Shown here: piece by piece, positions 1,869-6,345 of the stretch
Numbering within the stretch: the first letter of the stretch is position 1
How the letters are laid out: each line of letters starts with the position of its first letter
Source: Basidiobolus meristosporus CBS 931.73
Taxonomy: Eukaryota; Basidiobolomycota; Basidiobolomycetes; Basidiobolales; Basidiobolaceae
Direction: 5' to 3'
NCBI GenBank assembly: GCA_002104905.1
Contig: MCFE01000873.1
Location: 1-29,118, forward strand
Length of the DNA stretch: 29,118 nt
The notes under the pieces: generated by a model
Database searches by the model: none
Told to the model about the DNA's origin: nothing
Seen by the model: only the letters and a program-made list of their open reading frames with translations
Position numbers and translations under genes: made by a program

Positions 1869-2255
1869 TATCACACCCAGCAAGTCACCTTGGGGAGCAT
1901 CAGTACTTTGTGTGAAAAAGAAGGATGGAACACCTAGGATGTGCATTGACAACAGAGCCCTCAACTCAGTTACTGTGAAGAATAAGTACCACCTATCTTG
2001 ATTGATGAGCTTTTGGACCAACTCAATGGAGCCATCATATTCAGCAAGATTGACCTCATGTCAGGATACAACCCAATTAGGGTGAAACAAGCAGACATCC
2101 CTAAGACAGCTTTCAGAGCCAGATATGGACACTACAAGTACTTAGTCATGAGTCTTGGCCTTACTAATGCCCCTGAGAAGTTCATGACCATGATGCAAAC
2201 AGTCTTCCAAGAGTACTTAGACAAGTTTGTAGTAATCTAACTAGATGACATATTA
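1869..2255 (+). pseudogene. Ty3/gypsy reverse transcriptase, central piece (copy A)
   Basis: This segment encodes TPSKSPWGASVLCVKKKDGT, then C-I-D-N-R-A-L-N, then L-I-D-E-L-L-D-Q-L-N-G-A, then F-S-K-I-D-L-M-S-G-Y, T-A-F-R-A-R-Y-G-H-Y, G-L-T-N-A-P and finally the catalytic box read as V-V-I-stop-L-D-D-I-L. These are RT motifs 1-5 of Ty3/gypsy in the right order. The Y of the YLDD box is now a stop, and a one-base shift lies near 1,998. It ends at the TATTA target duplication of the Harbinger-like element. Confidence 0.92.
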
Positions 2256-3601
2256 GACTTGTTCCATTGTACCATGCCAGGGCATGCAGCGCAATCCGCG
2301 GTTGTACAGAATGATTGGGTGCAATATTATAGCTACCAGAAGGCAGGATTGTTCTTGGACAATTTTGCACTATGTGGGACAATCTTGCACACTATAGCAC
2401 AATCTGACATAATGAGGTTGGCACGGATGATTGTGCCAACTCATAATGTTTGCATCACATGCCCAACTGGATACCGCTATTATGGCAGGTAAAATCTGGT
2501 ATTTGGATATGTTTCTTTAATGTAAATGAAAATAAATGTGTATCACACTATAAACTACACTGATATTTACCATTTTGGTTACCATCACTCCAATTGGATG
2601 GTATCTCAGTGGTTAATTGGTCCAAAAGTATCCTGAAGCTGGCAGCCCCCAATTGGCTCATTGACTACTAAACAAGCTACCTGATTTGCCATCAAATATC
2701 CCTTTTTGCCCATTGGGCAAGTAAATCTCTGATCCTAGTGATTGGACAAGGTGTCATAGCTAGCATGCAAGCAATCAGGTAGGTGCAAAACAGATCCAAT
2801 AGCTGCACTGGTGTTGCAGATGATGTATATATATGCAGGGTGTTTATTTATAGGGGTTCTGTCTCAAATGTGAGATGTCCTTGATATTACTTCTATCAAA
2901 AATTCAATGACCACTGATTTGCAATGGCTTAATTTGGATTGCAAAAAAATGGGTTGTTGGGATCATCACAAATAATAGCAATTCAAAGCAATTGCATCAT
3001 CTTCTCCTGGGTTTTTTCTCACAGGGATTACTACTTAAGCATTTGGTAGTGACTCACTTTGCACACCTATACTACTTCCTGGCTGACTATCATCTTGGCT
3101 ACTTGTGTATTTGTAGTCAGTATCTTGCCTCCTAGTTGATGAGTGCAATGCTGCAGCTTGGTTACGCTGAATTGCTCCAATTGAACCAACTGAACCAGCC
3201 TGTAGTGCCACATGCTGACGTGTTCTTTTACTTGCCAAGGGCTCTGGTGGTTGAGGCACTTCATGTTGGTCATCATTAGTCAGCTCACCAGAAGTAACTC
3301 ACTGATTGTTAGGCAAAAAGGCACACGCAGGCGCAACTTGGTGTGTTAAGATGGCCCTTGGCTGAGTTCTATGTGATGCTGCATGTTGACGCAACTTGGT
3401 CCACTCCAATGGACCCATGTCTAAATGAGCAGCTTGGCAAGTTCTGGTAATTTTGCTCTGAAGCACACGTGTTGACTCAATGCAGGGTGTTCTGGTAAAG
3501 GGTGTTGGTGTAGTCTGGACTGATGTGCGCCAGCATGCTGTGGTTGCAAGAGATGGTAAGGAATCCAGCAAGGCATGCAGGCGTAATCTGGACAATGTTG
3601 C

Positions 3602-4228
3602 TTATGGTCTGTATTCTTCCTCCTGAAGCTCACCAACTGATTCCTCAAGGTATTCACTTACCCTCTGTCTGATACTTTGGAGCTGTTGCCTGGATGAGTC
3701 CTGTGTATATTGCTCTTGGAAGCCACTTAGCTCTACTAATATATCATGTAGTATATTAGTCATTTGAGGCAAAAACTCATTCAAAATCTCTTTGGTTCCC
3801 AAAGTTGAAGCACAAACAGACACATCTGGCCCATACTGTGTAAATTGCACGCAAAATTGTTCACGCATGGCTTCTTCATCAAATCCCCTCACTCTCAGCT
3901 CATTCTTGACTTCAATTCTTGTTTTTTTATATATCTTCTTACATACATTGGCTGGCATCTTGATGTAGAACTCACGCCACAGCTTTCTACTCCAATTCTT
4001 CCATCTTTGCTGACTCTCTGAGGTATCTAGTTCTGCTAGATTAATCAGTAGTGCCCAAATATCTGTATGAAGGCTCATCATAGACACTTGGGCCATACTA
4101 AAATCATTTGGCAAGAACTCAAACTGATCCAACATTGACTTTTCTGGTCTTGACTGCGCTTGTGAGCTGGGGGATAGGTTTTGTCTGGGTTGTACTAAAA
4201 AGGAGTTGAGACTTGGTATGGGGACCAT
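3602..4228 (-). CDS. Accessory protein of the Harbinger-like element, 208 aa
   Basis: An open frame of 208 codons runs opposite to the transposase. The product is hydrophilic. Residues about 50-115 are rich in W/K/R (W-K-N-W-S-R-K-L-W-R-E-F), and residues about 145-205 look amphipathic and glutamine/glutamate-rich, possibly coiled coil. I do not recognise a named domain. Harbinger elements normally carry a second gene for a Myb/SANT-like DNA-binding protein that partners the transposase; the W-rich block could play that role, but this is inference from position. The same strand at 3,035-3,595 has further overlapping open stretches in shifted frames, so the original gene may have been longer and is now frameshifted, or it may contain an intron. 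Confidence 0.6.
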   Translation of the reverse strand: MVPIPSLNSFLVQPRQNLSPSSQAQSRPEKSMLDQFEFLPNDFSMAQVSMMSLHTDIWALLINLAELDTSESQQRWKNWSRKLWREFYIKMPANVCKKIYKKTRIEVKNELRVRGFDEEAMREQFCVQFTQYGPDVSVCASTLGTKEILNEFLPQMTNILHDILVELSGFQEQYTQDSSRQQLQSIRQRVSEYLEESVGELQEEEYRP

Positions 4229-4587
4229 AGCAATGGATTTAGATAGTTATACAGCAGTATATTGGCATCAACCTGGTCTTATATGAAATATATATGAAAA
4301 CTAATGTGATTGTTGAATTTTCCATTTATTATGCATGATGCATCTTAGATTGCGTTGACACGGATCAGATCACATCAATTGCAGATTTCCTATTTAATTA
4401 TAGACCTATGAGTAAAGCATCAATAAAAGTACCAAGACATTATTTGCGGATGATTTTTGCAACATAATGATGAGATACATGGCAATTGATGGAGATTTAA
4501 TCATAATGCATAAAAAATCTGATAAATAATGTCGATCATGCCAAATCAATTCAAACCACCTCCATACAATCATCCACCAACTTTAAT

Positions 4588-5471
4588 ATGACTTACTCAT
4601 CTGAATGGTCTTTTCTCATCAATCCCATCACTACCACTGGATTTCCTTTTGACACACCAGAGGAAATCTATTTCAAGTACTGTGGACCATCTACCCCAAT
4701 CTACTCAAGGAGATCCCTTGTTAAGCTTCTCTGCTATTACAAGAACTATTGCCCTACAAGGTTTCATCCCACCATCCATGGCAACAAAAGTCCTAGAAGC
4801 TTTCATTCCCAGCTGACAGCAATGGAGAACCACCTTGCAGAGTGTATGAATGACTTAGAGCAAGCTTGGAATACTAGGTTCAGAAGCTCCAATAGACTTC
4901 CAAATCCCAGAGTGTTCAGCAACAGGTTCCATATCAGGAGTATCTTGGATACCTTCCCAGTGAGGATTAACAGACCTTCTAGAGGGCAGAGGCACTTTTA
5001 TTCTGGCAAGTACAATGCACACTGTGGGAAGTTTCAAGCACTGTCTGACATTGAGGGTACATCATCTGGTATAGTGGGCCATTTGCTGGAAGTAGGCATG
5101 ACAAAGCACTCTGGGTAGAGAATCATCCTGAATTCAGTAGAGGGGAGAAGTGTATGGCAGACTTAGCCTATATAGGAGAGGATTGTCACAGACTAGGATT
5201 TATTACAGCTTATAGGAAGCCAAGGAATGGTGTTCTTAGCAGGAAGCAGAAGCTCTACAATAAGATGTTTAATCACTTCAGAGTGAGGGTAGAGCACACA
5301 TCTGGATATCTGAAGAGATTCAGCATATTAGCAGGTAAGTACAGAGGAAAGTCATATAAAGGAGAAAACAGCAGAATAGGTAAAGTAGTTAAGATACTTA
5401 TTAATGCACAGTATGCTCATACAAGAATACATCCACTGAGAGAAATGTGTCTGGAGCATTATGAAGAGTAA
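4588..5471 (+). pseudogene. DDE_4 (Harbinger-type) transposase with one frameshift
   Basis: The first frame (4,588-about 5,085) encodes an N-terminal region and the first catalytic block: S-I-L-D-T-F followed by F-Y-S-G-K-Y-N-A-H-C, matching the family pattern 'DGT..PI.RP....FYSGK...H..K'. About base 5,085 the homology moves to another frame, giving G-S-R-H-D-K-A-L-W (second Asp), then A-D-L-A-Y-I-G-E, A-Y-R-K-P-R-N, and V-R-V-E-H-T-S-G-Y-L-K-R-F with the catalytic Glu, ending at a stop at 5,469-5,471. All three catalytic acidic residues are present, so one base change broke an otherwise nearly complete transposase of about 295 codons. It would cut and paste the element at its terminal repeats. 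The decay is light compared with the surrounding gypsy copy, in keeping with a later insertion. Confidence 0.85.
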
Positions 5472-5653
5472 ATAAAGCAAGGAAAGCACTATTCTGAGCA
5501 GCATAAGTAAGATTGAGTAAAATTACCAGTAACTGTATCATACCACCGGCATCATGGTAGAAATTATAGTGCCAAATAGTGCCGTAGGGTGCCAGATTGA
5601 TCCGGCACTATAAACAGGCTGGCACTATGTGGCACTATCCAATGGAACTAGTC

Positions 5654-6345
5654 TATTAATACTCAGCAAGCCACAAGAGGAACACTTGGTGCACATTGAA
5701 ACAGTCTTGGAGGAGCTAAGAAAGAACAAGCTGTATGGCAAGCTAGCAAAGTGTTACATCTTGAAGGAACCTGTTTAATACCTGGAACTTATGGTGACTA
5801 GCACAGGAGTGATCTTAGACCCTAAGAAGGTTGAAGTCATCAAGAATACAAAGCAGCCCTATAACATATCAGAACCCAGATTACTCCTTGGAATGGTTTC
5901 CCATTATTGGGGACTTGTCAAGTCCTTTGCAAGTATTGCAGCCTCTTTGACTGATATTCTCAAGAAAGTCAACACCTTGAAGTGGGACATAGCATGTGAG
6001 ATTACCCTTCAGATGCTTATGAATGAACTTGCTAAACTGCCAAGCTTACAAATACCTGACCTCAGACAAGAGTTTACTCTGTGCACAGATGCTTCAGACT
6101 ATGCAATTGGTGGATTACTAAGTCAAGAACATGTGGGAAAGGACTCTCTAGTTACTTTTGAGTACAAGAAACTGAACTTGGCAGAGCAAGATTTTCCAGT
6201 GCATGAGAAGGAGATGCTTGCCATAATACACTGCTTGAAGACCTGGAGATGCCACAATGAAGGAGTCAGGTGCACTATAAAGACTAATTGTGCCTCACTA
6301 ATGTTTATATTTAGTCAGAAGGTACTCTCCGGAAGAATGGCAAGA
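5654..6345 (+). pseudogene. Ty3/gypsy RT C-terminus and RNase H (copy A)
   Basis: The RT resumes as I-L-S-K-P-Q-E-E-H-L-V-H, then L-R-K-N-K-L-Y-G-K-L, G-V-I-L-D-P-K-K-V-E and the thumb region. RNase H starts at about 6,080 with T-D-A-S-D-Y-A-I-G-G-L-L-S-Q and goes on through H-E-K-E-M-L-A-I-I-H-C-L-K. A stop (TAA, about 5,776) and a TGA at 6,346, where related elements usually have an Arg codon, interrupt it. The second stop fits CGA to TGA deamination. Confidence 0.9.

What the first reader, a model, noticed from the sequence alone, without database searches (positions are those of the whole stretch)
2251..5658. Harbinger-like transposon with a 5-bp TATTA target duplication instead of the usual 3-bp TWA
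The DDE_4 transposase and the opposite-strand accessory frame place the element near PIF/Harbinger. That superfamily normally duplicates 3 bp (TTA/TAA). Here the ends GACTTGTTCCATTG..CAATGGAACTAGTC are flanked by a perfect TATTA, and removing exactly one TATTA plus the element restores the interrupted gypsy RT as D-D-I-L-I-L-S-K. A 3-bp duplication does not give symmetric termini. This could be a distinct fungal lineage of DDE_4 transposons with its own cleavage spacing, possibly undescribed.
Basis: partly seen in the sequence, partly recalled or inferred. Interest (0 to 1): 0.75.

Follow-up and report, generated by a model that had tools for sequence, protein, structure and literature searches.

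The report
Pangu-type fungal DNA transposon, 3-bp duplication

Summary
The element is real: window 2255-5654, inside a degenerate gypsy reverse transcriptase. Its ends were misread by one base each: the A and T of the TATTA copies that touch the element belong to it (AGACTTG..TAGTCT), and the duplication is ATT. Of 40 two-ended sites, 36 carry an exact 3-bp duplication, none longer; all 26 sites with a paralogous empty site fit 3 bp. The 5-bp reading matches exactly in 6 of 35 copies. Both readings excise to the same join, so D-D-I-L-I-L-S-K could not decide. The duplication is ANT, not the TWA of PIF/Harbinger: ANT precedes 330 of 408 exact left ends, TWA 1. ANT, AG-starting ends, about 3.4 kb and two ORFs (DDE_4 transposase plus a protein without known motif) are the printed description of Pangu (Han 2015; Harbinger2 in Repbase). 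Small additions: a palindromic target preference Y|ANT|R, which explains TATTA, and bacterial IS5-family relatives with AGAC ends and ANT duplications (8 of 19 hand-picked loci). Placement by tree was not testable. Verdict: new family of a known kind.

The parts
2255..5654 (+). Pangu-type DNA transposon, 3400 bp, AGACTTGTTCCATTG...CAATGGAACTAGTCT; an old, broken copy
   Evidence: boundaries from 35 two-ended copies; 92.7% mean identity to the others; 123 private changes against 1332 in the other 34 copies together, 39 each
2252..2254 (.). left target site duplication ATT
5655..5657 (.). right target site duplication ATT
2255..2279 (+). left terminal inverted repeat, 25 nt, 80% complementary to the right one
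5630..5654 (-). right terminal inverted repeat; GTGCC/GGCAC-type subterminal repeats lie just inside it
   Evidence: pairs I1, I3
4588..5471 (+). DDE_Tnp_4 transposase gene, broken here by a frameshift between the first and second D blocks; 17 of 35 copies (window included) hold an open frame of 316 codons or more, this one does not
3001..4246 (-). second gene, divergent from the transposase (head to head), interrupted here; no known domain, no homologue found
   Evidence: extent by position of the open frame in other copies
1860..2251 (+). interrupted gypsy reverse transcriptase, left flank (extent approximate)
   Evidence: paralogous empty copies in L027, L030, L021
5658..7053 (+). gypsy right flank: RT end, RNase H, integrase pieces, with in-frame stops
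11647..12379 (.). 733-bp non-autonomous relative (foldback MITE) with the same ends AGACTTGTTC, flanked by ATT at 11644-11646 and 12380-12382

Best explanation
A member of the Pangu group (Repbase Harbinger2) of the PHIS superfamily of DDE cut-and-paste transposons, in a repeat-rich fungal genome. Inferred mechanism: the DDE transposase (D122, D173, E237 of P0003, the open copy in L009) binds the AGACTTG ends, cuts the element out and joins it to a palindromic target Y|ANT|R with a 3-nt stagger; gap filling leaves ANT on both sides. Shown: ends, 3-bp ANT duplication, empty sites, target preference, open transposase frames with the DDE triad. Inferred: the chemistry, the role of the second protein, and that the transposase also moves the MITEs with the same ends.
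For: 36 of 40 two-ended sites have an exact 3-bp duplication (AAT 12, ATT 10, ACT 5, AGT 4, TTT 3, TAT 1, AAA 1 in element orientation), none longer. All 26 sites with an empty paralogue among the fetched loci overlap by 3 bp, the 4 sites with unequal flanks included. ANT precedes 330 of 408 exact left ends and follows 786 of 946 exact right-type ends; about 9% would follow from flank composition. Open copy: PF13359 at 8.8e-24 and PF01609 at 5.3e-10, nothing else over cut-off; second protein without a Pfam match over cut-off or homologue. Length 3382 to 3412 in 35 copies. All agree with the printed Pangu description: ANT, TIR 11-40 bp usually starting AG or GG, mean 3487 bp, two ORFs, the second without known motif, three basidiomycetes among the hosts.
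Against: No transposase tree with reference Pangu, PIF/Harbinger, ISL2EU and Nuwa proteins could be made (no Repbase here). 5 of the 36 duplications are not ANT (TTT 3, TAT 1, AAA 1), and 78 of 408 left ends are not preceded by ANT. The genes are head to head, whereas the autonomous Harbinger elements of Ectocarpus, ANT ones included, are described as tail to tail (PMC12477816 passages). Only 9 proteins were found by the profile search, none with an informative name. The discussion of Han 2015 gives Pangu a Myb/SANT protein, its results do not.
Confidence: 0.9

Rival explanations
1. A DDE_4 lineage that makes a 5-bp TATTA-type duplication with ends GACTTG.
For: The window copy, and 6 of 35 copies in all, also match as 5 bp when the ends are trimmed to GACTTG; T before and A after the 3-bp site in 8 of 40 sites.
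Against: The other 29 of 35 fail the 5-bp match; the element's outer A/T is kept although the target base there varies; 26 of 26 empty sites fit 3 bp.
Confidence: 0.01
2. A canonical PIF/Harbinger element with TWA duplications.
For: DDE_Tnp_4 domain, two genes, 3-bp duplication.
Against: TWA precedes 1 of 408 left ends and is none of the 36 exact duplications; no Myb/SANT match in the second protein.
Confidence: 0.04
3. A 1-bp duplication N inside fixed ends TAGACTTG..CAAGTCTA (ANT read as A-N-T with T and A part of the element).
For: Where the target is ANT, both readings give the same string.
Against: Five exact sites have TTT, TAT or AAA on both sides, so these bases follow the target and not the element; Pangu is published with ANT.
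Confidence: 0.03
4. A separate eukaryotic branch derived from bacterial IS5-family elements, parallel to Pangu and not inside it.
For: NCBIfam IS5_4 at 2.9e-14, though at 53.1 bits below its cut-off of 140; tblastn to plasmid IS5-family genes down to 4e-13; 8 of 19 hand-picked bacterial loci with AGAC ends and ANT duplications.
Against: Each Pangu feature that could be tested is met; Han 2015 already puts Pangu next to IS5.
Confidence: 0.06

Closest known systems
Pangu (Han et al. 2015, PMC4482050; Repbase Harbinger2 according to PMC12730594)
   Same: ANT duplication, AG-starting TIR, about 3.4 kb, DDE transposase without further domain, second ORF without known motif, occurs in basidiomycetes among others
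   Different: Its second protein had no relative in the one collection searched; a Y|ANT|R preference is not stated for Pangu in the parts read (1-3 of 4, no figures or tables); clade placement untested; the family could be one of their 34 or in Repbase, which I could not see
PIF/Harbinger
   Same: DDE_Tnp_4 transposase, two genes, 3-bp duplication
   Different: ANT instead of TWA; no Myb/SANT domain recognised in the second protein
NuwaII (C|TNA|G)
   Same: 3-bp duplication inside a 5-bp palindrome, the same 3-or-5 ambiguity noted by its authors
   Different: A-N-T core instead of T-N-A
Bacterial IS5 family, relatives such as those annotated IS702 (L054) and ISCysp19 (L052)
   Same: homologous DDE domain; AGAC or AGAA ends in 12 of 19 loci examined, ANT duplication with AGAC ends in 8 of 19
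   Different: only a transposase gene (annotated in two pieces in L047 and L057), about 0.9-1.2 kb, bacterial; the two loci with IS names have TTT and GTT flanks, not ANT
PHISTA (Puccinia, TA duplications, PMC12730594 passages)
   Same: PHIS element of fungi
   Different: 2-bp TA duplication, not seen here

Membership tests
Pangu | 3-bp 5'-ANT-3' target duplication | tested here: met
   36 of 40 sites exact, 31 of the 36 ANT; 26 of 26 empty sites 3 bp; ANT at 330 of 408 and 786 of 946 ends genome-wide
Pangu | TIR 11-40 bp usually beginning AG or GG | tested here: met
   25-nt arms at 80% in the window copy; each of the first 11 positions paired in 80-100% of 35 copies
Pangu | DDE transposase without other domains | tested here: met
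   PF13359 8.8e-24 and PF01609 5.3e-10 only over cut-off; D122, D173 and E237 invariant in A1
Pangu | second ORF without known motif | tested here: met
   no Pfam match over cut-off, none in NCBIfam, no homologue
Pangu | length near 3487 bp | tested here: met
   3382-3412 bp in 35 copies
Pangu | transposase inside the Pangu clade of a DDE tree | not testable with these tools
   no Repbase reference proteins available
PIF/Harbinger | TWA target duplication | tested here: not met
   1 of 408 left ends; 0 of 36 exact duplications
PIF/Harbinger | second ORF with Myb/SANT domain | tested here: inconclusive
   no Pfam match; model pLDDT 42.4, fold comparison uninformative
ISL2EU | 2-bp AT duplication | tested here: not met
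   3-bp duplications in 36 of 40
ISL2EU | second ORF with YqaJ | tested here: inconclusive
   no such Pfam match in P0004, model too poor to exclude it
Spy | no duplication on insertion | tested here: not met
NuwaI and NuwaII | CWG or C|TNA|G target | tested here: not met
   0 of 36 exact duplications are CWG or TNA
PHISTA | TA duplication | tested here: not met
bacterial IS5 family | curated NCBIfam IS5 model over its cut-off | tested here: not met
   best IS5_4, 53.1 bits against a cut-off of 140: a relative, not a member

The most novel reading that the evidence does not exclude
The end-recognition system (AGAC terminus, 3-nt stagger, palindromic Y|ANT|R target) has been kept between this fungal Pangu family and bacterial IS5-family elements now found on cyanobacterial, Spiroplasma and Acinetobacter plasmids, so that Pangu is a eukaryotic branch of one particular IS5 subgroup whose terminal cleavage rules were never changed.
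Probability: 0.4. Interest if true: 0.45.

Novelty: new member of a known kind. Interest (0 to 1): 0.25.

Why it matters
It removes a claimed new cleavage spacing and shows how a favoured palindromic target (T-ANT-A) mimics a 5-bp duplication when one copy is read alone, an ambiguity also printed for NuwaII. It adds a large family (408 exact left ends, with some copies whose two frames are both open) to a thinly sampled group: Han 2015 counted 34 Pangu families, two of them potentially active. It also ties the ends and target of a fungal Pangu-type family to bacterial IS5-family relatives.

Tried and rejected

Bacterial loci: 19 were picked by hand for spread of hosts, five (372 records at E <= 1) and 14 (207 records at E <= 0.001, 60 listed), so 8 of 19 is no frequency estimate. 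7 of 19 gave no convincing inverted repeat over shuffled flanks, among them all five Streptomyces loci (L050, L058, L059, L060, L064), L053, and L061, which is cut by the record start; L050 would read AAT inside GAGG-type ends, at a repeat score no better than its shuffles. L048 and L056 also scored no better than shuffles and are counted because their ends match L047 and carry an exact ANT duplication. For L046 a different, non-AGAC repeat scored best; its AGAC repeat is. For L047 and L051 the script placed the boundary further out and reported no duplication; ATT (L047) is and AAT (L051) was read from the letters printed.

Searches for the family or for ANT elements in print; no listed title or abstract start names this family, but most listed papers were not opened, and neither Repbase nor the supplements of Han 2015 could be searched.
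Full report
What was checked. The window is the whole of contig C1172 of an unnamed 89.0-Mb assembly in 1311 contigs. A search with 2251-5658 had 1765 first-look candidates, of which 38 were scored, giving 59 places; 38 of these, window included, run over 2,900 bases or more. All 38 were fetched with flanks. Two (L035, L037) lack a recognisable left end and one (L038) is cut by the contig end, leaving 35 two-ended copies. Five further sites were added from L041, L042, L043, L045 and the MITE in the window, making 40. 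A second copy in L043 and the copy in L044, not clearly two-ended, were left out.

Ends and duplication. With these ends 31 of 35 and 36 of 40 sites show an exact 3-bp duplication, and none a longer one. Twelve controls with one flank shifted by 4 to 9 positions match in 0 to 2 of 40. Counts of the 36 in element orientation: AAT 12, ATT 10, ACT 5, AGT 4, TTT 3, TAT 1, AAA 1. The 5-bp reading matches exactly in 6 of the 35 copies; T before and A after the 3-bp site occur together in 8 of the 40, one of them (L021) with unequal flanks. The four unequal sites are L019, L021, L026 and L040.

Empty sites. Flanks were mapped separately onto the window and the loci fetched by then, not onto the whole genome, keeping hits with both edges aligned and 70% identity or more. 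26 of 40 sites have such an empty paralogue, and in all 26 the flanks overlap by 3 bp, the four unequal sites included. The other 14 had none among these loci. For L040 (ATT left, AGT right) all but two of the empty copies printed read AGT (one GGT, one AGC), so the left copy most likely mutated after insertion (whose output was cut further down). The gypsy site of the window matches empty gypsy copies in L027, L030 and L021.

Target preference genome-wide. The exact left end AGACTTGTTCCATYGTAC occurs 408 times, its reversed control never. Before it stand ANT in 330, YANT in 282, TANT in 171 and TWA in 1. The exact right-type end occurs 946 times, followed by ANT in 786 and by ANTR in 645. Flank composition A 0.299, C 0.205, G 0.192, T 0.304 predicts about 9% ANT and about half Y or R. 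So the target is a palindrome Y|ANT|R: 282 of 330 and 645 of 786. TATTA is one of its favoured forms. Nested and duplicated copies make these counts not fully independent.

MITEs. Right-type ends often stand in opposite pairs about 735 bp apart. In the 100 places listed I count by eye 18 such pairs, of which 16 have complementary ANT flanks and 2 do not (one on C136, one on C291); pairs with a non-ANT flank do not appear in that listing. The window holds one element of this kind at 11647-12379, mostly foldback (arms of 177 nt at 96% and 187 nt at 83%), with ATT on both sides.

Coding content. Of the 35 copies, 17 have an open transposase frame of 316 codons or more, 6 an open second frame of 409 or more, 4 both. 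The window copy has neither. The open transposase of L009 matches PF13359 at 8.8e-24 and PF01609 at 5.3e-10. D122, D173 and E237 are invariant in A1, and the same residues stand in the nine-sequence alignment wherever a row reaches them. The second gene is divergent; the two open frames lie about 260 bp apart. Its product has a predicted helical stretch (46-204) and a long low-confidence tail, no Pfam match over cut-off, and no homologue.

Comparison with what is known. PMC4482050 (parts 1-3 of 4 read) defines Pangu by 5'-ANT-3' duplications confirmed by empty sites, TIRs of 11-40 bp usually starting AG or GG, autonomous length about 3487 bp, and two ORFs, the second without known motif; three basidiomycetes are among its hosts. 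Its Discussion, unlike its Results, lists Pangu among groups with a Myb/SANT protein. PMC12730594 (passages) equates Pangu with Repbase Harbinger2. PMC12477816 (passages) reports ANT-duplicating Harbinger elements in Ectocarpus, there with tail-to-tail genes. PMC3164196 (passages) treats rust Harbinger elements and says nothing of ANT in the passages seen. The element meets each Pangu feature that could be tested; the clade placement is untested.

Bacterial relatives. The open transposase hits plasmid IS5-family genes (372 records at E <= 1; 207 at E <= 0.001, best 4e-13). Of 19 loci picked by hand, 8 have AGAC ends and exact ANT duplications (L047 ATT, L048 AAT, L049 AAT, L051 AAT, L056 ATT, L057 ATT, L062 ATT, L063 AAT; in L049 the right end reads AGAT). 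Three have AGAC ends with other or unequal flanks (L046 AAT/ACT, L052 TTT, L055), one AGAA with GTT (L054), and 7 no convincing ends, all five Streptomyces loci among them (weak rows told under Tried and rejected). L062 also reads as a 5-bp TATTA when trimmed by one base, the same illusion as in the window. That Pangu and IS5 share ANT is in print; the shared AGAC start is seen here.

Age. The window copy has 123 private changes against 1332 in the other 34 copies together (39 each) and 92.7% mean identity to the rest, the others 94.2-96.4%: an old insertion.

Verdict. The element is ordinary for its group: a new family of Pangu-type transposons with a 3-bp ANT duplication. The claim of a 5-bp spacing fails.

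Noticed in passing
window 11647-12379: 733-bp foldback MITE with the same ends and an ATT duplication; pairs of this kind recur across the genome (right-type ends 946, left ends 408)
   Followed up: partly
L016, L033, L036, L040: These copies sit inside other copies of the same family (46-48 empty paralogues each); 4 of 40 sites looks high for self-insertion, but the sample was drawn by a search that may favour clustered copies
   Followed up: partly
L005 2251-3507 (-) and equivalents: Second protein of about 409-422 codons, no homologue found and no known domain; Han 2015 contradicts itself on whether the Pangu second ORF has Myb/SANT
   Followed up: partly
L035 and L037: Two copies whose first 20 bases are replaced by other sequence, with a similar TACACCAC-containing stretch in both
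   Followed up: no
window 15811-18430 (-): Chitin synthase gene pieces (PF03142, PF22997)
   Followed up: no
window 21840-23012 (-): TPR protein gene
   Followed up: no
window 10338-10706 (+): Retrotransposon gag-like remnant (DUF4939 over cut-off, Retrotrans_gag just below), about 1 kb before the MITE
   Followed up: no
L062 (Acinetobacter lwoffii plasmid pALWED3.6): A bacterial IS5-family element whose 3-bp ATT duplication also reads as TATTA when its ends are trimmed by one base
   Followed up: yes
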